In this document: piece by piece, positions 1 to 56,475 of the stretch
How positions within the stretch are numbered: the first letter of the stretch is position 1
Layout of the letters: each line of letters starts with the position of its first letter
Assembly: GCA_022495995.1 (NCBI GenBank)
Contig: JAFEMH010001451.1
Location: 276,501-340,500 of the forward strand
Direction: 5' to 3'
DNA from: Adenophora triphylla var. japonica
Taxonomy: Eukaryota; Streptophyta; Magnoliopsida; Asterales; Campanulaceae
Length of the DNA: 64,000 nt
The notes under the pieces: model-generated
What the model was told of the DNA's origin: nothing
Database searches by the model: none
What the model saw: the letters and a program-made list of their open reading frames with translations, nothing else
Program-made: the position numbers and the translations under genes

Positions 1-7
1 AACATAC

Positions 8-1951
8 CGAGGAGACATCAGATGGAAGGCGATAACCCTCAGGAATATGGTCCGGGATCGGGATGTGGCCCATCATCGGCATGCTCCCCATCATATATGT
101 GTAGCTCGGAGGACCATAATCCACCGTGAAAGGCAGAGGATCTGCATACTGGGAAGAAGTGCTGGGGGCTGACGAACCTGAGGCAGAGGTGGAGGTGGAA
201 GCCCGAGCAAATGACCGCCGAGCACCTACCAAGAGGGGACCTGATCCATCAGGCGAGGCAAGAACTCCGCATACGCAGCTCCTCGGACAATACAATCTGT
301 CGCCGCATAACCCTCCACAAGATCAGCATAATCATCATTAGGAATAAAGTAGGTAGGGTACATCGCCCTCGGCGGATCCGCTGGCACCACATATGGCAGT
401 GAACCCCGACCATGCTGTGGGAAGACTCGCTCGCCCAGATACATGGTATCCCCCTCCAGAGATACCAAAATCCTCTGCATCGCTGTGGCATCCCAAGCAC
501 GATGAACCTCCCGTTCCACCAAGGTCCACGGATAAAGGCCCAGCCGCTCAAACTCAAAGGCGTCCAACATGGCCCGCGCCTCTACAACCGTCAGGGTCCA
601 GTCCTAATCTTCCTCCTCATCAACAGTCCGATTGGGGTGGCTCCACCTCCTGATGTCCAGAAACAGAGGGTCCGGGCTATCCAGCTCAAACTTGTATAGT
701 CTAGAGACAACGTACCCCTATATTTGTACCAGAAAATAGAACAGATTCAGTACAAAACACAGATAAGAAGTGCAGATAAAAGACAGAGACAGAATCAAGA
801 GCATACCTCCCAAGCATAAGAATACCCTGACAGAGTATCCTTGGTGTGCCTACATGCCTCATCCATGGCATGATAACAGAAGGCCAGCCCAGCTGAGCCC
901 CAATCATAAGTCCTCACATCATTCAAATCAACCAACAAACCTAAGAGGGAGAGATGGGCCGTAGAAGAATGGTTCACAAAAATGGTCTCTGACAGAATGT
1001 ACTAGAGGGCACCCCGTACCAATCGATCAGTATCCGCATTCGGCTTAAGTGCATAAGCCTCAAGCTGAGATCGGAGAGGTGACAGCTCAACAGCAAAACC
1101 CTTAACCTTGTTAGGGGCAAAACCAATCAGCTGCCTCCATACAGCCGGACTCGCAGGCTTATAACCCGTAGTCTTCGGGTGGGGCTCACCGGTGAACTCC
1201 AACCCCGTGATAGCCAAAAAATCTGTCGGGGTCATGGTAGCTTCCCCGAAGCGAAGATGCACAGTGTTGGTAGTGTCCCACCACCTCTATTGGATTGGTC
1301 GAAGGACTTGGGGAGTCTGTCTCATCCCCTGGATGTTGTCAATGAAGGTCAAAAGCCCCGTTTGAGCCATCCTAGCTCGAACCCCATTGAGGCCCTTGAT
1401 TTTATCCCACAAATCTTTGGCAAGCTTCGGGCTCCCACGATAGTTTTTTGTTGTCCTGTACGACTGCAAAACAAAAGGAGAAGCAAAAGAGCAATGTTAG
1501 GCATCATCCCATGGCAAAATTTCAATGAAATAGAAGAAATTTCTCATTGAGACATTTCATCGAACGCTTAGTGTGCGCACAAGAAAAGCATGCCCAAAGA
1601 TGCATTTGACTACCCGAATCAACCCCTCCTACAATCCATGATATGTAGGGAACTCATACGCACACAATACAACGACAAACATCTAACAAATTCAACAAAA
1701 TAGAAACATGCAAGATAGAACCAAGTTCTAGACAAAAACAAGAAAAGCTGCCATTGATGAAATTGGAATTCAAAAATGGGATTCAAATGCAATGCAATGC
1801 ACAAAATGAGAAGTGAGAGAGAAGCTCTTACCAAACCTTCACGAACGGCGTGAGAAATGTGCATGCCCTTATCGAAAGTGAGGTCGTCACGGGGGTAATC
1901 CTTGCCAAGCAAATGACTCCCCAAAATTGGATTCTTCCTTCCTTGTGCCAT
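8..1951 (-). pseudogene. Antisense PMD gene of Tat-1 (PMD1), broken
   Basis: Plant mobile domain protein, a family including the Arabidopsis MAIN/MAIL1 silencing factors and many transposon-borne copies. Exon 1 is 1832-1951 (40 codons, starting MAQGRKNP, donor GTAAGAGC). Exon 2 is 807-1463 (acceptor after TTTTGTTTTGCAG, donor GTATGC), with the family block WWDTTNT, then GEATMTPTDFLAITGL. Exon 3 starts at 717 and holds the block MYLGERVFPQH. A Ser/Pro-rich tail is readable to about position 8, where another GTATG donor follows, so the gene may continue out of the window. In-frame stops lie at 1287-1289, 1002-1004 (where PMD2 has Trp) and about 606. The main frame ends at 226-228, and the tail reads in a different frame, implying an indel there. 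It runs against the element's own transcription. Exon boundaries are assigned by comparison with PMD2 and PMD3. Confidence 0.8.
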
Positions 1952-2096
1952 CGATATTGGAAGGAGAAGGGATTGAGGGTTGATTAAGAGAAGGAATCAA
2001 CAAGCAACAAGCAAAAATTGCAGAGAAAAATCGCCTTGGCTCGAGCTGGGAAAGAGAATTTGAAAATAAGTATTTTCAAAATAAACAGCTGCTGCT

Positions 2097-2154
2097 GTTA
2101 TATTGCCCCGACAGTTGATGTGTCGCACGAGACAAGATATCTCACGCGAGATAT
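2097..2154 (-). promoter_or_regulatory. Palindromic upstream region of PMD1
   Basis: About 150-200 bp upstream of the PMD1 start. It holds ATATCTCACGCGAGATAT (2137-2154; 7-bp arms) and TGTCGCACGAGACA (2121-2134). A TATA-like AATATAA lies at about 2097-2103 on the gene side. The same half-sites (ATCTCG, CGCACGAGA) occur in the Tat-1 LTR at 3163-3202. The promoter role is inferred from position and motif sharing. Confidence 0.5.
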
Positions 2155-2888: not shown

Positions 2889-2934
2889 GAAGCCGTGCGG
2901 CCCGACCATCCCAATGTTCAGAATGATGTCTTTT

Positions 2935-2981: not shown

Positions 2982-3964
2982 TGTAGACACCCCATTCTGA
3001 ACCCATCGGATCACATTTATATCGCTCTAAGTCTCGCCTTGAGTCAAGAAGTAGAAATCCACCATTTCATCATGTTTCGCTAAATTTTGGCTAACCACTG
3101 TTAGTTTGGGACTGAACTGCATACGAGATAATGAGGGAAGGGAAAAATTTTCCATAGACTGCTTTATCTCGTGCGGAATATCATGTCTCGCGCGAGATAA
3201 AGGAGTTCTGCAGACTGCAGATGGCAGTTTCCTTGTCAATTTCAACTTCTTTCGGGATAAAACTTCATCCATCCAGCCAGCTAATGAAGTTTGGATTCTG
3301 GAACCTTCCCAAGGTGTTTGATCTCATCCTCAACACCTCTCCAACACCTATAAATACCTGAAGAATTTTAATATTTCTGATCCCTAAAAATCCCAAGTAA
3401 AAACCCACATTTACTGGTTTCTCTCCTTGAAAGATTCCTGTAAATCACCCCTAAAATCACCCAAAGTTTGTTTGTCAACCTTGTTGATAAACAAACATCG
3501 AAGCCCGAATCAAGGACTGAAGCGAAGCTCTGTCCGTGTCAATATTTGACTCTAAACTTGAGTCGTAACTCTGCCCGAATTACCTCACGCAAGGTAATCT
3601 TTATTTCCTTTCTAATTGATTGTTTGAGTGGTATAAATATATCGAATCTAGGATCAGCCTAGAGCCTGCCCAAATCATGGGGATGGTCTCGAAGCAATCA
3701 ATCCTATATTGCGTTTAACCCCGTTAAATGGATCTTTATTTTATTTATTGTTTAAAATCTTCTCCTTCTTTGAAAACCTCTCTTTTCTTTAGCAAGACCG
3801 ATCTCCGGATTGGGTGGAATGGGTGCTCCTTGACCTTCCCATTCCAAAACCTAAGCCCCGAACCCAAAATCTATTTCAAAATGGTTTTCTATGTTTCCAA
3901 ACAAATAATATAGGTGGCGACTCAAAAAGATGTTAAAAAAAGGGAAAAATTGTGCATCGCTTCA
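2982..3964 (+). repeat. 3' LTR of Tat-1
   Basis: It begins TGTAGACACCCC after the polypurine tract and ends ..ATCGCTTCA. A TATA box (TATAAATA, 3349-3356) lies 150-190 bp downstream of a palindrome cluster at 3163-3202, which includes the perfect 12-mer TCTCGCGCGAGA at 3186-3197. The LTR end region contains GGTGGCGACTC, a feature shared with the other Tat LTRs here. The second LTR is outside the window, so the boundaries rest on TG/CA ends, the PPT and the resumption of Tat-B gag. Confidence 0.8.
3163..3202. promoter_or_regulatory. Palindrome cluster in the Tat-1 LTR promoter
   Basis: TTTATCTCGTGCGG is followed by TGTCTCGCGCGAGATAAAG, containing the perfect palindrome at 3186-3197. Its half-sites match the PMD1 upstream region at 2121-2154. 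Confidence 0.5.
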
Positions 3965-5370: not shown

Positions 5371-6532
5371 TCTGAAAGCCGGAGTTGAAGCGAACGATGA
5401 AGCTGATGACGTGCTTGATTCTTCTCAACTGACCAGACGGTGACCCGGTGTTCGTACCCAAGCTTTGCGAGGTGCTGCGAGAGGAAGATATAAGGGAGGT
5501 TCAGACTTTGGGAGTTGAAAGAGGGGTAGGTGTTTTGGCTCAGGGCTCACGCAACATGCAGTTATTTGTTTGAGTTTACTTAACCCTAAGCGGTTGGAAA
5601 AGATTGCTCTTTTTTTTTTACTACTATGAGTCATGGATCAGTGGGACCCATCACTATGCCTACGGACCCTCAACCTGTAACCTCGAACAAGGGTTCCATA
5701 GGGCAAGCGGGTCCCATCGACCGAAAAGGAAAACAGACCTAAGGTTTGGCGGATCATGAAGTCTTAACGCGCATTCGATGTAAATTACCGGCAAACCAGC
5801 GTCGAGGGTCAAGATCGAGTTAAGGTGCCTGACGAAAAGTCGGCATGACCTTGACTGATAATTGTCCACAAAAGATCTTGACTCGTCATTGGTTTTGCTG
5901 TAATTAAGCATAGACTGGGCATTAATCCTTGATGACTCGGTGTTACACCGGGAGCTGGTGCATAAATCGTGCAGGTCAAAGTCAAAATCCAAGCCCAGTC
6001 AAGATCTAGTCAAGGTTTATGACGAAAAAACGGCATGCCCTCGACTGATTTAGCTCCACGAAGGATCTTGACTCGGCACATTGACTAGGGTTTGACCGAC
6101 ACGAGGTATACACTGACATGGTCTGACACGAACCAGACTAAAAAAAACCAACCAAGTCTCAGACAAAATGTGTGTCACGGACAAGTGTAGGGTCAACACG
6201 AGGGTAAACCAATGGCTGTTTGGGTCATCCCGTGCTCGCACCAAGAGGCATAGTAAGGCCTCCCAGGCTGCTACTGAGATTTCCCGGGTTAAGGATGTAG
6301 TGTGCAGTGTACGGTCAACGTGCGCGTAGTTTGCGGCAGTCTAAATTCCTTTTTTGAGCAAAAACAGAAATTTTCAAATGTGTCTTAAAGGTACGATGCA
6401 TGCAAAAGATATATTTTTTTTAAATGAGACTAGCACGTGGCATTTTTAAACCATAATTTATCCCAGGCTCCAATAATGAAGCGTTTAACGGGAAGTTTAA
6501 TGGTTTCCATCCTTTATACTAAGTATCATCTT
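5371..6532. other. Tat-B leader, no gene seen
   Basis: Non-coding sequence upstream of gag. It contains two diverged copies of a block (about 5808-5900 and 5998-6090, offset about 190 bp) sharing GACGAAAA..CGGCATG and GATCTTGACTCG. A full primer-binding site was not found here. The origin of 6090-6532 is unclear. Confidence 0.5.
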
Positions 6533-7303
6533 GGAGATGAACTCCAAGATGACCACATTTTAGGTCAAAAGAGCAAGTAACAAGTAAATACTAGTTAATG
6601 TAAAAGGGACAAAGGGTAATACACAATAAAATGTGGATCCTTGTAGAGAATCATCCATGGAGATGGACTTCATGGAGATCCTCTTGGATCCTAGGACAAA
6701 GGGGAAGGGGAATAAACAACAAGTAAGTAAAATCACATCATGGAGACATGAAATGGATGCATGAACAAGGGAGTTTTGAGTAGGGAGAACAAGGGTTTAC
6801 CAATGTTTCTTGGGTTTGTGATTAAGGTTTGAGGATTTCAATGGCTTAGGAGTGGTTTTGGAGTGGATTTAATGTTGAATTTGGTGTGAAATTTGAGTGG
6901 TGAGAGTGTTGAGGGCTGTTTGAGGATGAATTTTGACAGAGTAATAGTAAGATTTATCAACTTTTGGCCTCTTTAAACTGAGGGAGAAGGGCTGTATTTA
7001 TAGGTTGGCTGGGATGCAATCTTATGAGCATGGATAAGATTGTAGGCACAATCTCATCCGCGCGGATGGGTTCAGTAGCGTGCCTGGTCCTGTGCAGAAA
7101 GCAGTTTTGGATTTTTCTAAATAGTCAATATTCCTTTTCCTTGGAAATGACACATTTTCAATGAGGTCCTTAACCATTTTCTTATTCCTAAGAGGCCCTT
7201 CCTCATTCAAATTGTCAAAATAATGTCCAAAATTCCCCTAAATGATTATAAATCATTAATTTGGGCTGACGAAACATTAATGACCCAGATTGGGGCACTT
7301 ACA
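6533..7303 (-). repeat. Truncated second LTR of the Tat-B family
   Basis: It aligns by eye with 8263-8999: the GGAGATGAACTCCAAGATG block, the TATA region TATTTATA (6995-7002), a palindrome at 7055-7068 and the end GGGGCACTTACA. Sequence to the left of about 6533 no longer matches the other LTR, so roughly the last 900 bp of the LTR (minus-strand sense) are missing. Confidence 0.75.
7055..7068. promoter_or_regulatory. Perfect palindrome in the Tat-B LTR promoter
   Basis: CATCCGCGCGGATG, 14 bp, lies upstream of the minus-strand TATA box at 7002-6995. Diverged versions occur in the other Tat-B LTR at 8715-8770 and 7695-7745. Confidence 0.5.
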
Positions 7304-13405: not shown

Positions 13406-14455
13406 TCAACTTGTCATGCTTAGAGCATACGAGACGTCGGGTCTAGTACAAATCATGGCGTACATGATAGATCCAATAGCCAAAGCGTATGGAACCTCAT
13501 TCATCCTCTTTCGCTCACCAGTTATCTTATGACACTGAGTCTTGCTAAGAGTAACACCATGACCTATTGGCAAGTTACCTCTCTTAGAATTTTCCATCTT
13601 GAATCTTCTAAGAACCTTGTCAATGTAAGTACTTTGACTCAAACCAATTATCCTTTTAGATCTATCTCTATAGATCTTGATACCAAGGATGTAAGCGACT
13701 TTACCCATATCTTTCATTGAGAAACATTTCCCTAACCAAGACTTGACAGTCTGAAGTGCATGAATGTCGTTTCCAATAAGTAAGATATCATCGACATACA
13801 ATATTAGAAATAGTATTACGCTCCCAGTGAATTTCATGTATTCACAAGGTTCATCTTCGTTCTTGTCAAAATCAAACTCTTTGATCTTTTCGTCAAAGCG
13901 AAGATTCCAACTCCTAGAAGCTTGCTTTATACCATATATGGATCTCTGCAACTTGCATACTTTGTTAGAATTTCTTGGATCAAAAAACCCTTCAGGCTAT
14001 GTCATATACAAATCCTCAACCAGCTTCCCATTAAGGAACGCTATTTTGACATCCATTTGCCATATCTCATAGTCATAATGTGCGGCTATGGCAATCAAAA
14101 TTCTAACATACTTAAGCATTACAACTGGCGAAAAGGTTTCGTCATAGTCAATACCATGAACTTGCCTAAATCCCTTTGCTACAAGCCAAGCCTTGTAAGT
14201 ATGCACCTTCCCATCCATGTCAGTCTTCTTCTTGAAGACCCATTTGCACCCTATGGTTTTTACACCTTCAGGTGGCTCAATCAAGTTCCAAACTTGATTG
14301 TCCGACATGGATTGTAATTCGAATTTCATGGCTTCTAGCCGTTTATCCGAATCAGGAGCGGACATCGCCTCTTGATAGGAAGTAGGTTCATCATTCTCAA
14401 TGGCTTCCACTTCATTACTTTCCGAAACTTGAAATCCATATCTCTCGGGTTCGGA
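13406..14455 (-). pseudogene. Cop-1 reverse transcriptase
   Basis: Copia RT with CKWVFKKKTDMDG, DYDETFSPVV, IWQMDVKIAFLNG, SIYGIKQASRSWN and catalytic LYVDDILLIGN. Stops are at 13997-13999 (TAG where Gln is usual, between YMT and PEGF), 14456-14458 and 13406-13408. Motif order and spacing are otherwise normal. Confidence 0.9.
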
Positions 14456-22965: not shown

Positions 22966-23110
22966 TGTTAGTAATTGGTCCTAAAAAAGGGTATTTCAAA
23001 TATCTTGGCCCGGTTAATTAAAACAAAACCCTAAAAACCCTAAAAATCTATTCATTATTCTGTCCCCTCCGCCGTCGGCCGTACGCGTGGAAAGTACGCC
23101 AGGAGATAGT

Positions 23111-23242
23111 GCCGATCGGCCCTTATCCTTTAAATGGCCGATCGACCCTTATTTTCTATGCCGATCGAACCTTAGCTTTAGGGCCGATCGACCCTTTGTT
23201 TCTGTGCCGATCGAACCTTATATTTAAGGCCGATCGACCCTT
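23111..23242. promoter_or_regulatory. Palindrome array in the Tat-G LTR promoter
   Basis: Six copies of GCCGATCG-centred sites, alternating GGCCGATCGACCCTT and GCCGATCGAACCTTA, within 160 bp upstream of the TATA box. The right LTR repeats the array at about 33379-33510. The antisense PMD3 upstream region has three more. Confidence 0.65.
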
Positions 23243-23271
23243 CCTCTGGTCCAGCCCAATTACCGAAGCAC

Positions 23272-23280
23272 TATAAATAG
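23272..23280 (+). promoter_or_regulatory. TATA box of the Tat-G LTR
   Basis: TATAAATAG, the probable core promoter of the genomic RNA. It is duplicated in the right LTR at about 33540-33548. Confidence 0.75.
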
Positions 23281-24154
23281 GCATCCTCGGTATCAGTTTT
23301 CAACACAGTTTCGTTCCTCATTCTCAACACACACGTACACACACACAATACAGTTTTCTTCCACACAATACTGTTTTCTTCCACACACATTATTTTACTC
23401 CGGAAAACTCAAGACTAAACTTGTTTTGTCCGCATCTCTCCCCACGTTCTTCGAATCGCCCTAGATTCGATCCCAAAGTCTTACTACAATTGGTAAGGCT
23501 CTTATTAATATTTTATCCCCTATTATTATTATTGTTATGTTAGAATAAATTTACTTGCATGCTTAATATGTTTTAATTGTACCTTTATGCTAGATTTATG
23601 ACTATTTTAATATATTTAAATATGCATAGCCGAGGATGATCTAAGGTTTCGCCCAAGAAAACCCAATGGATCTAGGAACTATTTCTTACTTTCCACCTTA
23701 GTAATAATTGTCCCATGATCAACAATCCCCCAAGGATGAACGTTGATTAGTGCACCTTCCGAGGGCCTAACTCAAAGGTTCTAGGGTGTGATCATCAATT
23801 AATTCTTTCTCTCCCCTCCTCCTTATGCATGATCCCGTTTCTTCTATCTATTCCTGTAAACACCGCACACAACCAACACCCCACATGCTAGAAAGACCGA
23901 TCCGTCGGGCAATAGGAGTGATAGCGTTTCTTCTTCTGTTGTAACTTGACCCCCGAACCCAATTAACTATTTAGCTTTTTTTCAAAGCTTTGGGCTATAT
24001 CAAAGTGGCGTGGCGACTCTCAAAAATTAAACTAATATTTTAATATGGTTTAAATCGAGTGTCACTAAATGAATATCCCATTTCGGTCCGACATTATATA
24101 ATTATTTATTTCAAACCTCCGAATGCGCGTTGCATCGGGACGGGGTATTCACAG

Positions 24155-27850: not shown

Positions 27851-27869
27851 TTGATAAACCAATCAGTGA

Positions 27870-28234: not shown

Positions 28235-28281
28235 GCCGGGGCTTTTGTTATGCTGTTCTCTCAGGCTTTCTTTACCAGATT

Positions 28282-29290: not shown

Positions 29291-31667
29291 CTAAAGACCC
29301 CGACGGGAGGTCGAAGCGCGACCGCGGGAAAATCTGGATGTCGAGCTACCCTCATCATGGGATCTCCGTCTCCGCTGCGCCAGATCCATGTCCACCGACC
29401 TCCGGGATTGGCAGGAAAGTGCCTGCACTGCACTCCTCAGCAGACGGCTCAGTACATTGGTCTGCCTCACAGCCCGCACATAAGAATCTCAGGTGACCTA
29501 CATAATCAGGCGCAAGAGTTACACCATGGCTAAAACATAATGATCGATGCATAAGAAGGAAAAGTAAGAGGCATACCCCGCCGGCACCGCCTGGAGGAAG
29601 CTGAGCACCCTCTACCTCATCGGCCTCTGTGGGCGTCAAGTCTACCCTCACCTCCCCGTCGGCCATATGCACAAAGAAGTGGTCGGGAAATGGAGGCATA
29701 TCTACAATCTCGGGATGTCCAGCACCCATCGGCTCGGGGATAACCAAACCCTGCTCCCCTATACCGGCAAATTTCTGGCCTCAAATAGTCCGCCTCACCA
29801 CCTGCGGTGATCTCAGAAAAAGCTCCACAAAGTCCACATAGCCCATATCAAGCCGGAACTGATAAGCAGGGACCCCAAGTAGATACTCCGCCCTCCTCGC
29901 CAATCGGTTCGGATACCACATGTTCCTGGGAGGATGTTGGGGCGCATAAAGCGGAGCCCACGCATAGTGCTGTCTCGCCACCCGCTCACCCAAATACATC
30001 TCATCAGCAAGCAATCCCACCAACAATCTGCGGGAAGCAGTTACATCTCGGACAGCACCAACCGTCTCTGAGGCCTCAGGAGTCCAAGGGTAGAGCAAAA
30101 ACTCGGGCCTACTGGGACCATCAAGAACAGCCCTCAGCTCAGACTCGCGGACCGTCTTCGGGAACCCCTCAATCCGATTCTCCTTCCTCCAGTAGCGCAA
30201 GACGGGCACATCCCGAGTCTGGTCCCGCAAAGTGAACGGCGCGACGCCGAAAATCTCATAGACCCATGCCTGCAAAGGACACGGAAAGCAGGTATTTATA
30301 AAGGCAGAAAGACAAGTAATAAATAAAGAGGACAATAAAAATGACAAAATTGACATACCTCCAGAACAAACTGAAAAGCGTCAAAAGAAGAGGTATTGGA
30401 CCTCGAGTCAGTATCAAGGGCCCGATACAGCTCGGCCAAGCCGGCCCCTCCCCAAGAGATATCTCGCACTAAGCTCAAATCAGTCAAGGCACCCAACAAA
30501 GAGAATCGGCATACTGGGCCCGAGTTGGGGAAGAGGGCCACTGAGAATCCGTACCAAAGGAATCCCCTGACAAGTGCGTCAAGCCCGTACTGGCCAGCCC
30601 TATACTGATCAATAGCAGCCCTAACCAGCCTGTACAACTTCCCCGCATCAACACCAAAATTCCTACTCGAGCCCAGGCTAGCACCAAACAACTGGACCTG
30701 ACGAGCCGGATCAGCATGAAGAGTATCATCAAAGGGCAGTGCTATGTCTGTGAACCTCAAGCCGGTAAGAACGGCGAAGTCTGTAGGAGTGATCGTGGCC
30801 TCTCCCCAACTCAAATGGAAGGTATGTGTCGTGTCCCACCAAAACTCCCGACACGCCTTCACCACCGCAGTGCACTTCCTGGTCTGGCCCATCTGCAGGA
30901 CCATGTCAAAAAAGGGGGCCAACCCCAAGCTCTGTACTCGCTCCCGAGGACTACCCTCACCGGCCGGCAAGGCCGCCCACAACTCACCTACCGCCTTAAG
31001 GGAGCTCCGTCCCTTCATCTTCTTCCCCTGCAGGTAAACACAACACAGGTACGTGTCATTACTCGCATTTTAATAAACACTTTGTACATGCATGAATTAT
31101 TCTGTTGTTAAATAAAAAAAAAATTTGTACCTTCATCCCGACACGGGAGCGAAGACCGGTGGACCCATGAAAAGCCAAGCCCGGATAAAAGTCAGACTGG
31201 TTGAACAACAGAAAATGCAGCCTCGAGGGTCGATAATTGCGCGAAGCCCGCCGCCTCCAAGCCTCAACGTCCCCGCCGGCGTCACTCCTATCACTCTCCC
31301 CGGCGTCAGGATCACCTTCCTCTTCATCATCATCTCCACCATTACCACCGCCATTGCCGCCACCATGACCGCTGTGTCCGCCACCACTGCCGCCATGACT
31401 GCCGCTGCCACCGCCGCCATGGCTGCCATCATCACCGCCACCATAACCTCCATAACCTCCATAACCACCATCAAAACCACCACCCATATTGCCATAACCA
31501 CTCCCAAAACCACCAGAACCGTGGCTGCCCCCGGCACCATGGCCACTAGCACCAACCCCGCCGCCATAGCCAAAGAAAACATCACCCATACCACCGGTAT
31601 ATGAGCCCAAGGATTGATCATCCGGTCGATTGAGCAAAAACTCCAAGGCGGCAACAGCAGGATCCAT
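29291..31667 (-). pseudogene. Antisense PMD gene of Tat-G (PMD3), four exons, two stops
   Basis: Exons: 31131-31667 (179 codons, start MDPAVAALEFLLNRPDDQ), 30359-31027, 29577-30269 and 29291-29497, all joined in phase 0 with GT..AG introns. Exon 1 encodes a long Gly-rich, Ser/His-containing low-complexity region and an acidic patch. Exon 2 has FWWDTTHTFHLSWGEATITP and GFLWYGFSVALFPNSG. Exon 3 has LLVGLLADEMYLGERVARQH. Exon 4 is a short basic Ser/Arg-rich tail. Two in-frame TGA codons (29781-29783, 29489-29491) break it; both could come from CGA by C-to-T change. It is otherwise collinear with PMD2. MAIN/MAIL1-type PMD proteins act in silencing and development. The function of this transposon copy is unknown. 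Confidence 0.88.
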
Positions 31668-31785: not shown

Positions 31786-31949
31786 TTTAAAGGCCGATCG
31801 GCCGAGGATCTGGCCAATAAGAAGAAGGGCCGATCGGCCCTTGATTTTGTGTTTCTTCTGATCGAGCGAACGGTCAGGATTCCATCTCAGCGACACGGAT
31901 CCGCGTCAATCATCCTTAGCCAATCAGGAAGAAGGGCCGATCGACCCTT
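31786..31949 (-). promoter_or_regulatory. PMD3 promoter region with LTR-type palindromes
   Basis: Upstream of the ATG: TTTAAAT (TATA-like, 31786-31791), GGCCGATCGGCC (31792-31803), the perfect 18-mer AAGGGCCGATCGGCCCTT (31825-31842) and AAGGGCCGATCGACCCTT (31932-31949). The same sites form the LTR array at 23111-23242. Confidence 0.65.
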
Positions 31950-33233: not shown

Positions 33234-34401
33234 TGTTAGTACCCGGTCCTAAAAAAGGGTATTTCAAATATCTTGGCCCGGTTAATTAAAACAAAACCCT
33301 AAAAACCCTAAAAATCTATTCATTATTCTGTCCCCTCCGCCGTCGGCCGTACGCGTGGAAAGTACGCCAGGAGATAGTGTCGATCGGCCCTTATCCTTTA
33401 AATGGCCGATCGACCCTTATTTTCTATGCCGATCGAACCTTAGCTTTAGGGCCGATCGACCCTTTGTTTCTGTGCCGATCGAACCTTATATTTAAGGCCG
33501 ATCGACCCTTCCTCTGGTCCAGCCCAATTACCGAAGCACTATAAATAGGCATCCTCGGTATCAGTTTTCAACACAGTTTCGTTCCCCATTCTCAACACAC
33601 ACGTACACACACACAATACAGTTTTCTTCCACACACATTATTTTACTCCGGAAAACTCAAGACTAAACTTGTTTTGTCCGCATCTCTCCCCACGTTCTTC
33701 GAATCGCCCTAGATTCGATCCCAAAGTCTTGCTACAATTGGTAAGGCTCTTATTAATATTTTATCCCCTATTATTATTATTGTTATGTTAGAATAAATTT
33801 ACTTGCATGCTTAATATGTTTTAATTGTACCTTTATGCTAGATTTATGACTATTTTAATATATTTAAATATGCATAGCCGAGGATGATCTAAGGTTTCTC
33901 CCAAGAAAACCCAATGGATCTAGGAACTATTTCTTACCTTCCACCTTAGTAATAATTGTCCCATGATCAACAATCCCCCAAGGATGAACGTTGATTAGTG
34001 CACCTTCCGAGGGCCTAACTCAAAGGTTCTAGGGTGTGATCATCAATTAATTCTTTCTCTCCCCTCCTCCTTATGCATGATCCCGTTTCTTCTATCTATT
34101 CCTGTAAACACCGCACACAAACAACACCCCACATGCTAGAAAGACCGATCCGTTGGGCAATAGGAGTGATAGCGTTTCTTCTTCTGTTGTAACTTGACCC
34201 CCGAACCCAATTAACTGTTTAGCTTTTTTTGAAAGCTTTGGCCTATATCAAAGTGGCGTGGCGACTCTCAAAAATTAAACTAATATTTTAATATGGTTTA
34301 AATCGAGTGTCACTAAATGAATATCCCATTTCGGTCCGACATTATATAATTATTTATTTCAAACCTCCGAATGTGCGTTGCATCGGGACGGGGTATTCAA
34401 A
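33234..34401 (+). repeat. 3' LTR of Tat-G
   Basis: TGTTAGTACCCGG..ATTCAAA, 1,168 bp, nearly identical to 22966-24153 with about 15 single-base differences by eye. Confidence 0.95.
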
Positions 34402-40430: not shown

Positions 40431-40435
40431 CTGAA

Positions 40436-47569: not shown

Positions 47570-49596
47570 TGAAATTACCCGGGATTTCGCGCGGACGCGA
47601 AACGCGGTTGTCTTTCGCGGGGGGTTAGTGTCTGAGACCATGCTTCATGGGAAGGAAAATGAGGAGTCGCCATGCGGTTTTTTGTATTTTGAGCCCAAAC
47701 GTTGAGAAACGGCTATTGTGAAAATGGTGTCGTTTTTATTGGTAGCAAAAACTTAGGAAAAGGCTTTGAAAACAGGGGATCATTTTTATTGGTAGCAAAA
47801 ACGAGTAAAAAGCTTTGAGTACCAGAGATTGTTAGGTTCGGAGGTCACGTTACGTTTCGGGAAGAGTATTATGAGATCACCCGAAACGCCTCGCATGACG
47901 AGTCTTTCTACCTTTCTCGAAAACGTGTGTGTGTGTGTTTTGAAATGGGGGCTTGAATGACAAGCTTAATTTTGGTTTGAATGTCAAACGTTGATTGGGT
48001 GACTTTATTTGAAAATACGAGCGTTTGAATGACAAACATCGGTTTTGAGTTTGAAATGAGCGTTTGCGTGGCAAACGTCGATTTTGAGCTTTTGAAAGAG
48101 TGTTCGAAGGACGAACTCCGGTTTTGAACCGGGCGAGTCATTGTTAACGATTTTTACGGGAAAAACGTATTAAATGATTTTATGTGTCAAATGGCGGCTT
48201 TTAGTTTGAAGATGAGCATTTGGAGGCCAAACGTCATTTCGCGCGTTTTGAAAGAGAGTTCGAAGGACGAACTCCGGTTTTGAACCGGGCATTACATTGT
48301 TAACAATTTTTACGGGAAAAACGCGTATTAAATGACATGCAATCAACGAATCGGGTTGCGACTCGGACTTTGAAAAGTAAATACTATCACGATCCAAACG
48401 GGTCGGACTTTGTAAATGACAGTATTTAAAGCAGTATCAACGGAATCAAACGATCCGGAATTGTAAATGACGATCAACGAGCCAAAACGGCTCGAAATTG
48501 TAAATGACGATCGACGAGCCAAAACGGCTCGGAATTGTAAATGACGATCAACGAGCCAAAACGGCTCGGAATTGTAAATGACGGAAAGTAAGTGACGATC
48601 GACGGATCGATTGATCCGGAATGGTAAATGACATAAAAAGTAAACAGAACGGGGTCGGAACGCCGTTTTAACCCGTGATTACTTCTCTTACGGGAAGAGA
48701 AGAGGATCGAGGGGCTAAAACGTAACGGACCCCGTTAGACGGAGGCGTCTACATTTCAATAACGTTGTTCGAAACGGTTATAGCGACTGGCGCGTAAACC
48801 GAGACGAAACGAGAGGTTTAGAGAGAGGGAGTTATACCTATGGCTAGGGTCGACTCCTTTGGCTCGGGGGGTGTGTACGGGACACGGAAAGTAGTTTGAA
48901 ACGGTGTTTCAGAGTGGTGAGGGGCATATTTGATTGAAATACGGAAGTTTCACGCGAATCGAGACAAAATGGGAGCTCGGGAGGGGTGAAACTGCTTAGG
49001 GCCGTGGGGTAGAGTGATTTTGGGAGTAAAAATCTTCCTCTTTTGGCTTTGACAGCAACTTCTATTTATAGGTGAAAAATGCAGTAAGAGTCCGGACGGA
49101 CTTAGACTGTTTTCCAGGGTTTTTTGGTATTTTGGAATTTTGAGGGGCTTGCTGGCAATTTCAGAAAATTTGCACAGGAGTCCCACGGACTTTGACTGAA
49201 ATCCAGGGGTATTTTGGTCTTTTGGCCTTGATTTGTGATTGAAAGGTGACTAGAGGGAGGTGGCATGGCTGCCACGTGCCCTGTGAGTCACCAAAGGTGT
49301 GGGAGTTCGTTCCCCGGTCCCGATTTTGTCCGTTTTTTAAAATAACAGTCCGAAAAATGTCCGAAACGCCCCCGAAAAGTGCCGGAAAGTGCGTTTTTCA
49401 GGGAAAGCCGTACTTTTACGTGCGATGACACGTGTTAAGTACGCTTCGACGTCGGGATGCACGGGGCAGTCCCGGGACGTCTCGTTGGCATGGCAACGGG
49501 GAGTTTAACGAGTTCCGGTTAACCTGGAGCGGGCCAGTTAACGGATTTCGGTTAACTTTCTGACGGATTTTGACGATCCGGATTTGGGTACTTACA
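47570..49596 (-). repeat. 3' LTR of Tat-F (2,027 bp)
   Basis: Minus strand from TGTAAGTACCCAAATCC at 49596 to ..GGGTAATTTCA at 47570, breaking Tat-E gag. TATA box TATAAATA (49070-49063). AGTCCGGACGGACT (49089-49102) and GGAGTCCCACGGACT (49177-49191) lie just upstream of it. Internal 36-bp repeats lie at about 48435-48580, each with GAGCCAAAACGGCTC. Confidence 0.82.
49063..49193 (-). promoter_or_regulatory. Tat-F LTR promoter: TATA and palindromes
   Basis: TATAAATA with two AGTCC..GGACT sites upstream, each followed by a TNGACTG and CCAGGG extension. The antisense genes have the same composite site at 51394 and 54799. Confidence 0.6.
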
Positions 49597-50285: not shown

Positions 50286-51260
50286 TTTAACGTCGGGAGA
50301 CGGAAATGCAATTGGAATGTCCGGAGACATGATTGAGCGTTTGAACGTCAAACGTCAACTGGGGATTGAATTTAACGTCTGGAGACGGAATTGTAACTGG
50401 AATGTCCGGAGACATGATTGAGCGTTTGAATGTCAAACGTCAACTGGGGATTGAATTTAACGTCTGGAGACGAGCGTTAGTGAAAACTAACTGGGAATTT
50501 AACGTCTGGAGACGGAATTGTAACTGGAATGTCCGGAGACATGATTGAGCGTTTGAATGTCAAACGTCACCAGGGATTGAATTTAACGTCTGGAAACGGA
50601 ATTGTAACTGGAATGTCCGGAGACATGATTGATCATTTGAATGTCAAACGTCAACTTGGGATTGAATTTAACGTCGGGAGACGGAATTGTAACTGGAATG
50701 TCCGGAGACATGATTGAGCGTTTGAATGTCAAACGTCAACTGGGGATAAAATTTAACGTCTGAAGACGAGCGTTAGTGAAAACTAACTGGGAATTTAACG
50801 TCTGGAGACTAACGTTAGTGAAAACTAACTGAGAATTTAACGTCTGGAGACGAGCGTTAGTGAAAACTAACTGGGAATTTAATGTCTGGAGACGAGCGTT
50901 AGTGAAAACTAACTGGGAATTTAACGTCTGGAGACGAGCGTTAGTGAAAACTAACTGGGAATTTAACGTCTGGAGACGAGCGTTAGTGAAAACTAACTGG
51001 GAATTTAACGTCTGGAGACGAGCGTTAGTGAAAACTAACGGGGAATTTAACGTCTGGAGACGAGCGTTAGTGAAAACTAATGGGGAATTTAACGTCTGGA
51101 GACGAGCGTTAGTGAAAACTAACTGGGAATTTAACGTCTGGAGACAAGAGTTAGTGAAAACTAACTGGGAATTTAACGTCTGGAGACGAGCGTTAGTGAA
51201 AACTAACTGGGAATTTAACGTCTGAAGACAAGCGTTAGTGAAAACTAACTGGGAATTTAT
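50286..51260. repeat. Tandem arrays: about 87-bp units, then a 42-bp array
   Basis: 50286-50755 holds units mixing AATTTAACGTCTGGAGACG, GAATGTCCGGAGACATGATT and GAGCGTTTGAATGTCAAACG. 50756-51260 has about 11 copies of a 42-bp unit (TGGAGACGAGCGTTAGTGAA, AACTAACTGGGAATTTAACG). Its 14-codon period creates a false open frame at 50860-51225. Confidence 0.93.
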
Positions 51261-51393
51261 CCTCGGGGGATAGGGTGTTAGAAATGTCTAACTGGAGGGA
51301 AATTTTACACTTTTGGGGGCCAAAAGGAGTAAAATTGGAACTGCCAAAAATTGAGGGACTGAAATGGAAGGAATCTTTTTAAATTGCAGCAGG

Positions 51394-51557: not shown

Positions 51558-54395
51558 ATGGAAGGTGATTGGGAACCAATGGCTCGTCATGGAAGGACCG
51601 ATGACGAAAGAACGCGGTTGGTTCGGACCATTCGAACCATCATTCATCCATTGAATCCGGCGGAGTTTTACCCGGCTAGGGATAGACACAACTCCAAGGG
51701 AGGGATCGAAAGACAAGTAAGCTTCCTTCAAATTCCATTAATTTTAAGAATGTGCATTCTTTAAATGTTAGAAATTTGATTAGGAATGAGTTAGGGATTT
51801 TGGTGCCCGAATTTGGGCTTTTGACTTTGCTATGAATTTTTGTCGAAATTGACTAGGCTGTAGTTCAATTGACACTGTGGGTAGATGACATAAAAATTTT
51901 GGTTGCAAAATTCCATGTCTAGATGCATTTTCCAAAATTAAAGTAGCTTTAATTCGGGACGGAGTAAATTTTCGAAATGTTCGAAAAGATTTGAAAGTTC
52001 CGGTTTCGACGGAGTTTTCAAAATGATTTTGAAAGTTCCGGATTCGACGGAGTTTTCGGAATGATTTTGAAAGTTCCGGAGTCGACGGAGTTTTCGAAAG
52101 ATTTTGAAAGTTCCGGATTCGACGGAGTTTTCGAAATAATTTTGAAAGTTCCGGATTCGACGGAGTTTTCGGAATATTTCGAAAGTTCCGGATTCGACGG
52201 AGTTTTTGAAAGATTTTGAAAGTTCCGGATTCAACGGAGTTTTCGAAATGATTTTGAAAGTTCCGGATGCGACGGAGTTTTCGAAATGATTTTGAAAGTT
52301 CCGGATTCGACGGAGTTTTCGGAATGTTTTGAAATCTTGGACCGTCAATACTCCAACCGGGATGGAAGTATTTTAGGAAAGGAATAAGAACTGCCATTGC
52401 ATTGCATCATTCTGACATGCGTCGTGCATTCTGTTGATGTTGCTATTGTCTTGTTCACCCGCAGGGGCGAGGGACGGTTGATACCCACATCCAGAAGAGT
52501 CGGGGTGCCTTTGAGGCAGTGCGAGCGTTGTGGGAGGCCTTCCCGGACGTGGCTCGAGAGGGAGAGAGGAGTCCGTGGCAGCTGGTGCTTGAATACGAGT
52601 TGGCTGGGTTTATCAGTGCGGTAGCTGCGATAGCTGCGACGCCGAGGGCCAGGTCCATCTATGTAGCTCTGAGCGAGTATTGGTGGGATACGACCGATAC
52701 TTTCCATTTCAGGTGGGGGAGGCGACGGTGACTCCCACGGATTTTGCTGCTATCACTGGGTTGCCGACCTATGGCAACACGCTGGTGTGGGTTGACGGTT
52801 ACACCCCGGAGCAGTTGTCTGAGCTGCTGGGTTTTGACATTACCGATGCCAGGGGCTTAGGCATTCGGTACAGGCCGATGGAGAGGAATCTGGAGGCGGG
52901 TATTTCCGATTATTTGGATGGGTCTTTGAGGATGACTGCGGAGCGCCTGGCTCGAGGGTTCATTTGGTTCACGTTGTCAGCGACTTTGTTCCCGACTTCT
53001 AACACATCCTGTCACTTCCCTCTGCTCGGGTCGCTGACAGATCTGGATGCCGTGAGGGGGTACGCCTGGGGGGAGGCTGGACTGGCCGAGCTCTATCATT
53101 CCCTGGACAGATTCTCGCGAGGAGAGGAGAACTCCTTGAGCTGCTTCACACCCGTCTTGGATGTAAGTTCACGTCCTTTTTCTCTTCCTTGTCTCTTTTA
53201 TGTACTCGTATGTATCTGCTCTGTAGCTGACATAACTTTCCATTTGCTTGACAGGTCTGGTGCTATGAGGTGTTCAGTCCGCAGGATTGGGACATCAAGG
53301 AGGCGTATCGACCCCTGTTCCCTGTCATGCTGATTTGGCAGAAGAAAGCGAAGAGGGCGGTCTCGTCGAGAGTCGGCACTCGAGTGTCATACGAGGAGGT
53401 ATCTCTGGCACTGAACCGGGAGTTCTCCGAGAGGATCCAGCTGACCTGGTGGAGTCGGTTCCACTATGGCGTGGTTCAGGTTGCTAGCGAGGTGACGCGG
53501 CGGAGGAAGCTCCTGGTGGGACTTCATTGCGACTCTATGTATCTGGGGGAGCGGGTGACCCGTCAGCACGGCCCGGGGTCCATTCCGTTGGTGCCGGTGG
53601 ATCCTCCTATGCACATGCAGCATCCTCGGGAGATGCCGATGGAGGAGTTGGAGAGGTATAGACAGGGCGCATTCTATACCGAGTATATCATAGCGGGGGC
53701 TGCCTATGATACTTTCTTGAGGATGAGGCTGAGGAGCCCACAGGTGCAGCATAGGGAGGGCGATGGCCCTGGATATCCCCGAGATCTCCCGCTCCCACGC
53801 GCTAGGCTGGCGTACGAGGGGCTGGACGGTTCGCGCAGGCGACTTGTGATCCCACTCCCGGATGAGCCGAGACCACGATACAGGGCTGACCCCAATGCTT
53901 CGGTGAGCACTTTTTGATTTTCTGCATTTGATAGTAGTATTCTGCAAATGTTGCATCTGTACTTTCTGTTCGTCTTCTGATGACCTTCCTGGTTCGCAGG
54001 TGTCTGGCCGTACAAACAACGACGCTATGAGGCTGGTGGACGGGTGGTCTGCCTATGCTAGGAGGCTCGTGGCGTTCATGCGATGCAGTTCCCGGAGGAG
54101 CGTGGATGTCCGTGAGCCGAGGCCGTCTAGGCCGAGAGGTTCGCCTGCTCCCACGGCTGGTGGGGAGGACTTTGCACAGGGATTTGGCCAGTTCGCGGGT
54201 GGAACGGCTGGATTTGGAGCTCATTCTTCTTCGCACCCGGGGCGCGAGAGGGGAGAGTCCTCGAGTTCGCATACGCCGAGGAGGCCTTTTGCATATTCCC
54301 GCCTGGAGGAATTTGGCGAATTCCTGTTTGCGACGGATCCGGCAGCGGCGGAGCAGTGCGTCGAGTGCTCGGATGACGAGCAGGACTCGGAGTAG
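51558..54395 (+). pseudogene. Antisense PMD gene of Tat-F (PMD2), four exons, one frameshift
   Basis: Exons: 51558-51716 (53 codons, start MEGDWEPMARHGRTDDERTR), 52465-53162, 53255-53902 and 54000-54395; introns are GT..AG and phase 0 once corrected. Exon 2 carries EYWWDTTDTFHF, then GEATVTPTDFAAITGL, but a G run at about 52713-52723 is one base short, splitting it into two frames. Exon 3 has RRKLLVGLHCDSMYLGERVT. Exon 4 encodes a Gly/Ser/Arg-rich tail ending DDEQDSE. Apart from the one-base gap all blocks are open, making it the best-preserved of the three PMD copies. If the G run is a sequencing error, the gene could be intact. Confidence 0.88.
51976..52335. repeat. 38-bp minisatellite in PMD2 intron 1
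   Basis: About nine to ten copies of TTTTGAAAGTTCCGGATTCG plus ACGGAGTTTTCGAAATGA, wholly inside the 748-bp intron 51717-52464. It creates false minus-strand frames (51780-52397). Confidence 0.92.
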
Positions 54396-54937
54396 TCCTT
54401 TTTTACTGCTTTCTTTCTCTTTTTTTTTATGTATCGTCTGGAACGATTTGATTTGAACTGTATTCGAAAAAGGCGCCCGTGGGGCGGAACCTGTACTTCG
54501 CACATTTATTCTGTGATCACCTTTTGTTATTTTTGACAAATAAGGAAGTAGGTTAATCAAAAATAAATAAAATGAGACATGTATTAAAAATTGAACAGGT
54601 TAAAAGTTAAGCCTACATGCACTGATTATTAATTATTTGCACTGTTGCACGAGCCCGGGGCGGAAGGGATATTGACATTGGTTGAATGAAACTAGGGGCA
54701 GCACGCAGGTTTCATAAAGGATGAACAGGGAGTTATTTGGAATTGTTTCCAATTCAGGAGCAGCTGGCTGCAGAGTTGACCAAGTCAACTGCAGAGGGAG
54801 TCCGGCCGGACTAGGAGTGAATTTCCAGATTCTTTAAATTGCAGTTTCAGCTTTGCAATTTGTAAGAAACTGCGCATTTCTTTTGATCAGTTTAGCTGAA
54901 TTCTCTCAAATTTCTTAGGCTTCCTTCACTTTCTGTC
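54396..54937 (+). promoter_or_regulatory. Intergenic promoter region of the DUF7745-like gene
   Basis: It holds AGTCCGGCCGGACT at 54799-54812, followed by AGGAGTGAATTTCCAG, and a TATA-like TTTAAAT at about 54835. The ATG follows at 54938. The rest is unremarkable. Confidence 0.55.
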
Positions 54938-56475
54938 ATGGCTCCCTTTCCCAAGCTATCGTCTCGGATGCAAGAGCGATATTTGGACAATTTTCAGTCG
55001 TGGGTGCGGAACCACACGAGGCAGAACAAGGGGTTTTTCGAAGGCTGTTACAGGATTAAATCTGTTTCGGCTTTGAAGGAGCTCATGCCAGATTGGGATC
55101 TTTTGAGAGTCGCGTCTCGCTTCTGGGACATAAGGAGGAATGTGTACAACTTTTCGTACAACGAAGTCACTCCTACGTTCGAAGATTTCCGGGCCATTCT
55201 GGGAGGACCTGAGACGGAACAACTAGTTCTTCCGTATGCTGGTGGCATGGCCACTGTTGAGAAGCTAGTGTCTTTGCTTGGTATCTCGGCTGGAGAAGCA
55301 TACGGGATGCTGATATTGGATACTGATTATGTTGACATTTCGGGACTGCCTGAAAGGTTTGCCGGAGCTGAGGGGAGCGTCTTTTGTGGGACGCGTTTGC
55401 TCTGTGTGCGATCTCTACTCTGTTCACGTTCACGTCTCTGGGTGTGTGCCATCACAGCAGATCGGACTTGGTGAGGCAAAGGCCGGAGCGGGGAGACATC
55501 GTGCCGTTGGTCTTAGGCGAGACGTTCCTGGGCATAGGTCGGATGGCGACCGGAAGCCGATACATGTGGGGAGGGAGTTCCGCTATGCTTACCATGTGGT
55601 TGAGGGAGAGACCGCAGATGATGCCCGAGGTGCCAATGTCCCGCGACGCTTGGTCCTTCTCTCGACGTCCTCTCGGTGATGGGGCGATCAGCCGAGCCGG
55701 AGCTCGGATGGCCGTACTCCGCACGCATCACTTGCGATGGTGGGTTCCCCACCGGAAGTTACAGACTTGTCGGACCACTCAGAAGGTCACTTGGTTGTCG
55801 AGTGCCGGGGCCGTCTCGCACGTCTTTCTATATTCCATCGTTGGTTCTGCGACAAGACGGGCCGGAGCAGTGCCATTGACGGGTTTGAGTTATGCCGCTA
55901 CCTTTGAGGTGGGATCTCTCGCCGATGGAAGATCCTTCGACGCTATTGCCGCTCACGCGGTGGTGGCAATACACGTCCTTTCCGCCAGGGTTCTCCTTCA
56001 CCGAAGAGGGGGCACTGCTCGTCGACGCAAAGATCCGAACCGGTACGAAGAGTGTATAGGGAGACACAGATGGCTATCTTGTGGAGACGGGAAGAGTCAG
56101 CTGGTGTGGCCAACTTGATGCTCGACTTTGAGGAGGACCAAAGCGAGAGCTAATCCTAGGGATCGTACTCGGAATGCCATGGCTGACTATGAGGCCAATG
56201 CTGATCGGGAGGCCAATCAAAGCACTGTTATGATGGCTCGAAGCGAGGCAGCTCGAGATAGAGCCAGAGAAAGGGCTGCTGATGCCTACAAGCTTGACGG
56301 AGGCATCGGGAAGGGTCCCCGAGCCAGTAGAAGGACTACCGGAATATTTCCCGTGAAGGTGAAGAACACTCGTCGAGGAAGGGGAAGGGGAAGAAGGATG
56401 AAGGACCAAGTACGGGAAACTAGGTTGACCTTGCTGTCCATAGTATCCACCCATTGTCATTTGCAGAAACATTAA
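54938..56475 (+). pseudogene. DUF7745-like antisense gene of Tat-F, several frameshifts
   Basis: Start MAPFPKLSSRMQERYLDNFQ. The first frame (54938 to about 55370) has WDLLRVASRFWDIRRNVYNF and EVTPTFEDFRAILGGP, the layout typical of DUF7745 plant proteins. After a shift near 55370, WDAFALCAISTLFTF and VPLVLGETFLGIGRM follow. A piece with FYIPSLVLRQDGPEQ lies in another frame (55676-55879). The C-terminal part (56128-56475) is charged and probably helical. At least three frame changes make it dead. DUF7745 has no known function. I assign it from recalled family pattern. Confidence 0.65.

What the first reader, a model, noticed from the sequence alone, without database searches (positions are those of the whole stretch)
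1..56475. Each of three Tat elements shares a private palindrome between its LTR promoter and its own antisense gene promoter(s)
Tat-1: TCTCGCGCGAGA in the LTR (3186-3197) and ATATCTCACGCGAGATAT upstream of PMD1 (2137-2154). Tat-G: six GGCCGATCG sites in the LTR (23111-23242) and three upstream of PMD3, one the perfect 18-mer AAGGGCCGATCGGCCCTT. Tat-F: AGTCCGGACGGACT in the LTR (49089) and AGTCCGGCCGGACT upstream of both PMD2 (51394) and the DUF7745-like gene (54799). The motif differs between elements but is the same within one, and in the LTRs it lies just upstream of the TATA box. This suggests sense and antisense promoters of one element are read by one dimeric DNA-binding factor. By analogy with VANC proteins of VANDAL transposons, which bind motifs of their own family, an antisense-encoded protein could be that factor; this is speculation.
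Basis: partly seen in the sequence, partly recalled or inferred. Interest (0 to 1): 0.88.

Follow-up and report, generated by a model that had tools for sequence, protein, structure and literature searches.

The report
Retrotransposons with private shared promoter palindromes
In this plant genome, three families of retrotransposons each place their own short mirror-image DNA word in their main promoter and in the promoters of their backward-running genes, which suggests that each family runs its own small gene-control circuit.

Summary
All six stated coordinates are right. Genome-wide the palindromes of Tat-G, Tat-F and Tat-1 occur 135, 11,099 and 5,887 times, against 0, 4 and 0 for reversed controls. 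Across Tat-G copies the sites sit in the LTR and upstream of the antisense PMD gene. In 11 of 11 copies with a second antisense gene (DUF7745/PMD-like) they also sit upstream of that gene; 0 of 8 evaluable copies without it have that third cluster. Second-gene promoters sampled without using the motif have it in 8 of 8. Motif CpGs are kept in 76/77 and 132/136 comparisons, against 210/350 and 105/145 elsewhere. Both antisense genes show purifying selection. The motifs share a CGNNCG core.

So each element looks like a regulon, most likely read by one dimeric factor. I favour an antisense-encoded PMD-superfamily protein, but no binding was tested. A host factor remains a serious rival: a Copia element in the window has LTR palindromes and no antisense gene was found for it. 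Not found in print in the searches made.

The parts
1002..1951 (-). Tat-1: antisense PMD1 gene, 5' part (start codon at 1949-1951; PMD domain in 1002-1286)
   Evidence: Pfam PF10536 E 3.7e-7, below the curated cut-off; ATG position
2120..2154 (.). Tat-1: site doublet upstream of PMD1 (degenerate partner plus ATATCTCACGCGAGATAT)
   Evidence: a 16-bp TATCTCGCG[C/T]GAGATA stands there in 4 of 4 other copies fetched
2982..3700 (+). Tat-1: 3' LTR, start at 2982, TATA box 3348-3357; right end not determined, 3700 is arbitrary
3165..3199 (.). Tat-1: LTR site doublet, 19 bp apart (TATCTCGTGCG.. and TCTCGCGCGAGA)
   Evidence: present in 2 of 2 evaluable of 4 other LTR stretches (L047, L051)
22966..24151 (+). 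Tat-G: 5' LTR, TATA 23269-23281
   Evidence: 97.1% identical to 33234-34399
23107..23242 (.). Tat-G: six CGATCG sites (23113, 23139, 23162, 23185, 23208, 23231)
   Evidence: motif CpGs 132/136 kept v 105/145 elsewhere in U3
29355..31667 (-). Tat-G: antisense PMD3 gene in several open pieces (start codon 31665-31667)
   Evidence: Pfam PF10536 E 5.2e-17 in the piece 30296-31069; purifying selection across copies
31789..31949 (.). Tat-G: three sites upstream of PMD3 (cores 31795, 31831, 31938), including the perfect 18-mer 31825-31842
   Evidence: CpG retention 76/77 at the two sites not used for picking copies
33234..34399 (+). Tat-G: 3' LTR with the same six sites (33381, 33407, 33430, 33453, 33476, 33499)
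49062..49596 (-). Tat-F: LTR from its start (49596) to TATA (49062-49074); the other LTR end was not determined
49089..49191 (.). Tat-F: LTR palindrome at 49089-49102 and a broken second site at 49179
   Evidence: pairs 91-94 bp apart recur in the genome
51394..51407 (.). Tat-F: palindrome upstream of PMD2
   Evidence: present in L033 and L034, which were chosen by site spacing
51559..54395 (+). Tat-F: antisense PMD2 gene region (PMD domain in 52593-53333)
   Evidence: Pfam PF10536 E 2.2e-13
54799..54812 (.). Tat-F: palindrome upstream of the DUF7745-like gene
   Evidence: palindrome 110-140 bp before this gene's exact 18-base start at 371 places genome-wide, control 0
54938..56475 (+). Tat-F: second antisense gene, DUF7745/PMD-like
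   Evidence: PF24924 E 0.0025, below cut-off; its N-terminal part aligns with the Tat-G second gene, 33% identity
59386..62074 (-). Tat-F: pol region (reverse transcriptase 59386-60516); gives the sense direction of the element
   Evidence: Pfam RVT_1 E 5.1e-19

Best explanation
Each Tat element is a small regulon. Its sense promoter (LTR) and the promoters of its antisense genes carry a family-private dyad operator with a CGNNCG core. Most likely one dimeric factor reads all of them, and most likely that factor is an antisense-encoded PMD-superfamily protein (PMD or its DUF7745-like paralogue). The protein would drive or protect the LTR and its own promoter in one loop, by activation or VANC-like anti-silencing. 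Shown by sequence: the shared sites, their retention, selection on the genes, and co-occurrence of site cluster and gene. Inferred: dimeric binding, identity of the factor, activation rather than repression.
For: Genome-wide counts 135 v 0, 11,099 v 4 and 5,887 v 0. Tat-G: 19 of 20 copies have 3-8 sites within 230 bp upstream of a TATAAATA box; all 20 have 2-4 sites at the PMD promoter, but they were picked by the 18-mer there. The third cluster is present in 11 of 11 copies with gene 2 and 0 of 8 evaluable copies without it. Motif-independent sample: 8 of 8 gene-2 promoters. Tat-1: 4 of 4 PMD1 promoters, chosen by a 682-bp match that includes the site. The flanked motif is absent from 48.2 kb matching PMD3 and 21.0 kb matching the inner region 24300-29300 in the 20 copies. 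CpG retention. dN/dS at 80% or more protein identity: 0.13-0.30 for gene 2 (5 loci) and 0.15-0.35 for the PMD core piece (10 loci). Tat-F: palindromes 86-100% identical between promoters of one element, 30-base flanks 27-53%. A PMD DNA transposon has GGAGCGATCGCTCC at its ends (612 v 0). A gag-only relative keeps the Tat-1 sites with no antisense ORF of 120 codons, as expected if the factor acts in trans.
Against: No binding, expression or methylation data. PMD has no demonstrated DNA binding in the two MAIN/MAIL1 papers of which I read passages. The AlphaFold model of gene 2 is worthless (pLDDT 33). Copia LTRs (and 36034/36128) carry CACGANTCGTG palindromes, and the LTR-like repeats 6521-7303 and 8247-8999 carry CATCCNCGCGGATG, with no antisense gene found: palindromes before a TATA box are not special to PMD elements. 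In the PMD DNA transposon the sites could be transposase sites. In the gag-only relative the inner sites lie in the leader before gag, not at an antisense gene. The C-terminal PMD piece is less constrained (dN/dS 0.17-0.72 over 19 rows).
Confidence: 0.5

Rival explanations
1. Host transcription factors read the palindromes. Each family has adopted a different host dimeric factor and uses its site in all its promoters, so that sense and antisense genes are expressed in the same cells.
For: Copia LTRs and the 36034/36128 sites share CACGANTCGTG though no antisense gene was found there. The LTR-like repeats at 6521-7303 and 8247-8999 have CATCCNCGCGGATG before TATA. CCAAT boxes conserved next to the Tat-G antisense sites show ordinary promoter architecture.
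Against: Three or four unrelated private palindromes with one common CGNNCG core would need as many host factors of one kind. The listed Tat-F sites fall at element-specific spacings. No host family with these sites is known to me (recalled, not searched).
Confidence: 0.33
2. The element protein binds its own sites as a repressor: negative autoregulation and LTR shut-off (copy-number control), not activation.
For: A site abuts a TTTAAA box in the PMD3 promoter and another lies 15 bp from the Tat-F TATA, close enough to block initiation; antisense transcripts could also silence.
Against: A gag-only relative keeps the sites, whereas escape from a repressor would favour loss. Groups of 3-8 sites look more like activator sites or VANC targets (inference).
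Confidence: 0.1
3. The shared words are inherited sequence: an ancestral promoter piece was copied within the element and has no present role.
For: Some flanking likeness is seen between Tat-F promoters beyond the palindrome, up to 53% over 30 bases.
Against: Within one element, flanks are 27-53% identical while palindromes are 86-100%. Motif CpGs are kept where other CpGs are lost (Fisher 5.7e-14 and 4.0e-9, copies not independent).
Confidence: 0.05

Closest known systems
VANC proteins of VANDAL (MULE) transposons, Arabidopsis (PMC5735166; passages read)
   Same: Private short motif per family, often in tandem arrays in non-coding DNA, changing between related families; an element-encoded protein reads it.
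   Different: VANC motifs (YAGTATTAY; AGTTGTCC/AGTTGTAC) are not palindromic CG words; VANDALs are DNA transposons; here the carrier is an LTR retrotransposon, the candidate is a PMD/DUF7745-like protein coded antisense, and no binding is shown.
Antisense additional ORFs (aORFs) of Retand, Grande and related retrotransposons (PMC11963269, PMC7264820; passages read)
   Same: [quoted passage not shown] Grande gene23 has its own promoter; a regulatory, possibly DNA-binding role was suggested.
   Different: The Retand ORFs mostly carry TRP28; the passages report no site shared between LTR and antisense promoter. Here the genes are PMD and DUF7745-like.
MAIN/MAIL1 plant mobile domain proteins (PMC7156037, PMC9899485; passages read)
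   Same: Genes that need these PMD proteins are enriched for a promoter word ('DOWN' motif), and the proteins are tied to transposon silencing.
   Different: The DOWN word (CATGCAGTTT in MORC1) is unlike the palindromes here; direct binding was not shown there either.
Antisense genes of deltaretroviruses (HTLV; named in PMC7264820 passages, otherwise recalled)
   Same: An antisense gene of a retroelement proposed to regulate it.
   Different: The HTLV antisense promoter lies in the 3' LTR; here antisense promoters are internal and share a private operator with the LTR.

Membership tests
VANC-like anti-silencing system | Family-private short motif, repeated in non-coding parts of the element | tested here: met
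   Sites in LTR and antisense promoters of three families; flanked motif absent from coding matches in 20 Tat-G copies
VANC-like anti-silencing system | Element-encoded protein binds the motif | not testable with these tools
   Needs EMSA, ChIP or DAP-seq
VANC-like anti-silencing system | Loss of DNA methylation caused in trans | not testable with these tools
   No methylome held
VANC-like anti-silencing system | Protein homologous to VANC | not tested
   Pfam hits are PMD and DUF7745 only; no direct comparison with VANC was made
Ty3/gypsy Tat lineage with antisense aORF | Genes antisense to the element, on the 3' LTR side | tested here: met
   Tat-F: RT on -, PMD2 and DUF7745-like on +; Tat-G and Tat-1: by LTR direction and order in copies
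Ty3/gypsy Tat lineage with antisense aORF | Reverse transcriptase groups with Tat in a tree | not tested
RVT_1 found in Tat-F; no RT match in Tat-G 24300-29300; Tat-1 pol lies outside the window
Ty3/gypsy Tat lineage with antisense aORF | TRP28 domain in the antisense ORF (Retand) | tested here: not met
   The antisense pieces scanned hit PMD or DUF7745, not PF04195
Plant mobile domain (PF10536) | Pfam score over the curated cut-off | tested here: met
   PMD3 62.5 and PMD2 50.6 bits against 34.9; PMD1 30.1 is below it; gene 2 scores 25.3 and 27.9, below

The most novel reading that the evidence does not exclude
PMD-superfamily proteins are a class of sequence-specific, dimeric, CG-reading regulators that mobile elements carry. 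Each LTR or DNA transposon lineage co-evolves its own CGNNCG palindrome with its own PMD/DUF7745 protein, so that sense and antisense promoters form one self-sustaining, methylation-aware circuit that gag-only derivatives then parasitise. Host MAIN/MAIL1 proteins would be domesticated members.
Probability: 0.35. Interest if true: 0.92.

Novelty: new variant of a known kind. Interest (0 to 1): 0.8.

Why it matters
The role of antisense genes in plant LTR retrotransposons is called undetermined or unknown in both papers on them that I read in part (PMC7264820, PMC11963269). A private operator shared between the LTR and those genes' promoters gives a direct, cheap test: does the antisense protein bind that word? 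It would also give PMD proteins, tied so far to transposon silencing without a shown DNA contact, a candidate activity, and would supply DNA-word/protein pairs evolved by transposons.

Tried and rejected
Large shared promoter duplication: disfavoured, flanks are far less alike than the palindromes. Chance palindromes: rejected. Reading the roughly 990-bp spacing of Tat-1 sites as LTR to antisense promoter: rejected for the one locus read (L035), where it is 5' LTR to leader, upstream of gag, in a gag-only element. Structure: AlphaFold on 8 sequences gave pLDDT 33, so no fold search was made. Protein homologues of gene 2 in the large database: none of 7565 candidates at E<=0.001. Solved structures: two weak matches for gene 2 (best E 0.053, taken as chance) and none for a PMD piece. 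The strong PF10536 hits (149 matches; 115 of 36,013 candidates scored) were hoped to be further Tat families; the four places read look like DNA transposons instead, though an RT piece lies in L029 and an integrase piece in L028, kilobases from PMD. Never answered: all starts of the Tat-F DUF7745-like gene (the denominator), CATCCNCGCGGATG and GGGCCGATCGRCCCTT genome-wide. Cross-check with the 40 copies: of the 10 on contigs covered by the printed list (up to C656), 5 show exact palindrome plus exact start word; the other 5 miss one or both words or the spacing. L001-L004 are shorter cuts of the loci L024, L005, L006 and L007 and were not counted as extra copies. Left unused: 1 structure job, 3 genome searches, 6 protein-family searches, 2 large protein searches, 1 paper search.
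Full report
WHAT WAS CHECKED. Refinements: in Tat-G the six LTR sites are CGATCG cores, five of them in a 23-bp register and the first 26 bp off; Tat-1 sites in the window are doublets 19 bp apart in both promoters; Tat-F has a second, broken LTR site 90 bp from the first.

ELEMENTS. Tat-F: reverse transcriptase on the minus strand at 59386-60516, PMD2 (PF10536, E 2.2e-13) and a DUF7745-like gene (PF24924, E 0.0025, below cut-off) on the plus strand, LTR start at 49596 on minus. Tat-G: LTR pair 22966-24151 and 33234-34399, 97.1% identical, plus strand by LTR start and TATA, PMD3 on minus (E 5.2e-17); no reverse transcriptase match was found in its inner region. Tat-1: PMD1 on minus (E 3.7e-7, below cut-off), LTR from 2982 on plus. 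So in each case the PMD gene opposes the element. 'Tat' itself was not tested by a tree.

A COMMON FORM. Tat-1 CT-CGNNCG-AG (in the window's antisense site one CG reads CA); Tat-G GGC-CGATCG-GCC; Tat-F AGTC-CGGNCG-GACT. In the window, 11 CGNNCG sites have three or more symmetric flanking bases, against about 1.6 expected from a first-order Markov model. Six of the 11 belong to the finding's three elements; the rest lie at 7059, 40872, 41280, 41986 and 49734.

GENOME-WIDE. Exact 18-mer of Tat-G: 135 places, reversed control 0. AGTCCGGNCGGACT: 11,099 forward and 11,105 reverse, control 4 and 1. TATCTCNCGCGAGATA: 5,887 and 5,892, control 0 and 0. Of the 62 distinct Tat-F sites in the printed part, 38 pairs lie within 8 kb (about 2 expected if scattered): 11 pairs at 91-94 bp, 15 at 1.66-2.36 kb, 4 at 3.19-3.34 kb, 8 at 4.99-7.62 kb. 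The first three distances fit the LTR pair, LTR to PMD2, and PMD2 to DUF7745-like gene. Two loci read (L033, L034, about 80% identical to the window) have the palindrome, or for the LTR of L033 imperfect forms of it, at all three promoters; they were chosen by the spacing. The palindrome stands 110-140 bp before the exact 18-base start of the DUF7745-like gene at 193 + 178 places, control 0. The denominator was not obtained; 5 of 10 independently listed copies that could be checked show both exact words.

TAT-G COPIES. Twenty stretches of 9.9 kb around 18-mers were read. They were picked by the 18-mer, so its presence is not evidence. A PMD3 homologue lies behind it in 20 of 20 (L011 has two inverted copies). 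In 19 of 20 there are 3-8 CGATCG sites within 230 bp upstream of a TATAAATA box; L005 has no such box in its stretch. Neighbouring cores closer than 60 bp are exactly 23 bp apart in 68 of 138 pairs. Over 214 sites the commonest letters read AAGGGC-CGATCG-[GA]CCCTT, the left half being weaker. The flanked motif is absent from 48.2 kb matching PMD3 and 21.0 kb matching the inner region; bare CGATCG cores do occur there now and then.

A THIRD PROMOTER. Eleven of the 20 copies (L009, L011, L012, L015-L019, L022-L024) hold a further cluster of sites beyond the 3' end of PMD3. In L015 and L024 it lies about 165-330 bp upstream of the start codon of a second antisense gene, open over 473 codons in both. 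tblastn finds this gene in exactly those 11 (L015 being the query). In the other nine it was not found; in eight of these the inner region of the window type follows PMD3 directly and there is no cluster, while the L005 stretch ends too early to tell. The protein hits DUF7745 in its N-terminal part and PMD in its C-terminal part and aligns with the Tat-F DUF7745-like protein (33%), so Tat-F and this Tat-G type carry the same two-gene antisense module. Sampling by protein, not by motif: 90 copies were scored out of 52,071 first-look candidates, 81 of 90 without an internal stop (the scored ones are the best, so this leans to intact copies). The promoters of 8 of these 90 were fetched: 8 of 8 have 4 or 5 CGATCG cores.

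TAT-1 COPIES. A DNA search with PMD1 start plus promoter gave 40 scored copies of 2452 candidates, the window itself and 39 at 91-94%. Of four read, 4 of 4 have a 16-bp TATCTCGCG[C/T]GAGATA upstream of PMD1. Of their four LTR stretches two show the doublet (L047, L051, one with a C-to-T change), one ends before the place (L049) and one diverges soon after the LTR start (L045). L035 is a gag-only relative (Retrotrans_gag): a doublet in the 3' LTR, a single site in the 5' LTR, doublets twice in the leader before gag, and no antisense ORF of 120 codons. So sites can also serve sense-side positions, and they persist without a PMD gene in cis.

SELECTION. In the antisense promoter, CpGs of the two motifs not used for picking are kept in 76 of 77 comparisons with the window, other CpGs in 210 of 350 (Fisher 5.7e-14). 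In the LTR U3 (14 of 20 copies, those aligning from the LTR start): 132 of 136 against 105 of 145 (4.0e-9). Copies are related, so these probabilities are too small, but the contrast is clear. dN/dS against L015 is 0.13-0.30 for gene 2 (5 loci with at least 80% protein identity) and 0.15-0.35 for the PMD core piece (10 loci; 13 rows, three being second cuts of the same loci). Poorer alignments of these two, many with stops, give 0.19-0.86. Against L019, the N-terminal PMD piece gives 0.09-0.32 (14 rows) and the C-terminal piece 0.17-0.72 (19 rows) (all). Both antisense proteins appear to have been maintained.

NOT JUST A COPIED PROMOTER. In Tat-F, comparing LTR, PMD2 and DUF7745-like promoters within one element (nine pairs in three copies, one LTR site per copy), palindromes are 86-100% alike and the 30 bases on either side 27-53%.

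A SECOND KIND OF ELEMENT. The strongest PMD matches in the genome include loci that do not look like LTR elements. At the four places read (L025-L032) there are clusters of CGATCG words such as GGAGCGATCGCTCC, mixed with TCCGGA words, upstream of PMD, and further CGATCG words beyond its other end in three of the four. One place shows inverted ends 86% alike (L031/L028); MULE transposase matches lie near two (L027, L028). GGAGCGATCGCTCC occurs 612 times, control 0. PMD genes thus keep company with CGNNCG palindromes in two kinds of transposon, although at transposon ends the sites may serve a transposase.

MECHANISM. I think each family has one dimeric reader for all its promoters (about 0.85). 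For it: the words are private but of one form, the antisense protein family common to these elements is PMD, PMD DNA transposons follow the same rule, and a gag-only relative keeps the sites. Against it: Copia LTRs in the window carry CACGANTCGTG, also at 36034 and 36128, and two further LTR-like repeats carry CATCCNCGCGGATG before TATA, with no antisense gene found. A host reader per family is therefore a live rival (0.33). Activation or anti-silencing fits better than repression because a derivative keeps the sites, but this is inference.

KNOWN WORK. VANC proteins read private motifs that form tandem arrays (PMC5735166, passages). Papers on antisense ORFs propose a regulatory role, a DNA-binding prediction for TRP28, and mention the own promoter of Grande gene23 (PMC7264820, PMC11963269, passages). 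Genes that need MAIN/MAIL1 are enriched for a DOWN motif, binding unproven (PMC7156037, PMC9899485, passages). PMD was previously reported in plant Gypsy elements and MULEs (PMC9289625, passages). I found no report of an operator shared by LTR and antisense promoters in the searches (open-licence papers only, listings); no held paper names DUF7745.

Noticed in passing
window 11112-12791 and 17483-19160: LTRs of a Copia element (pol pieces 13406-15834, minus) carry CACGANTCGTG palindromes at 11667, 11758, 11891, 11910 and 18038, 18129, 18281; the same core stands at 36034 and 36128. No antisense gene was found; a useful control for host-read palindromes.
   Followed up: partly
window 6521-7303 and 8247-8999: Two LTR-like repeats (79.6% alike, TATA on minus at 7003 and 8699) with CATCCGCGCGGATG and CATCCACGCGGATG about 50 bp upstream of TATA; another CGNNCG-type palindrome, no antisense gene identified.
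   Followed up: partly
window 40869, 41277, 41983: Three TGTCGNNCGACA palindromes within 1.1 kb of unassigned sequence near a chromovirus-like element.
   Followed up: no
L025-L032: PMD-bearing DNA-transposon-like loci with CGATCG and TCCGGA words at their ends, inverted ends in one, MULE transposase matches near two; palindrome GGAGCGATCGCTCC 612 times in the genome.
   Followed up: partly
L035:136-7601: Gag-only retroelement that keeps the Tat-1 palindrome: doublet in the 3' LTR, single site in the 5' LTR, two doublets in its leader.
   Followed up: partly
window 50286-51379, 32029-32774, 51935-52372: Tandem arrays between LTR and antisense gene (42-bp unit in Tat-F, 35-36-bp unit in Tat-G) and a 37-38-bp array inside the PMD2 region.
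   Followed up: no
window 31786-31803: In the PMD3 promoter the first site abuts a TTTAAA box, and CCAAT boxes between the sites are largely conserved across copies.
   Followed up: no
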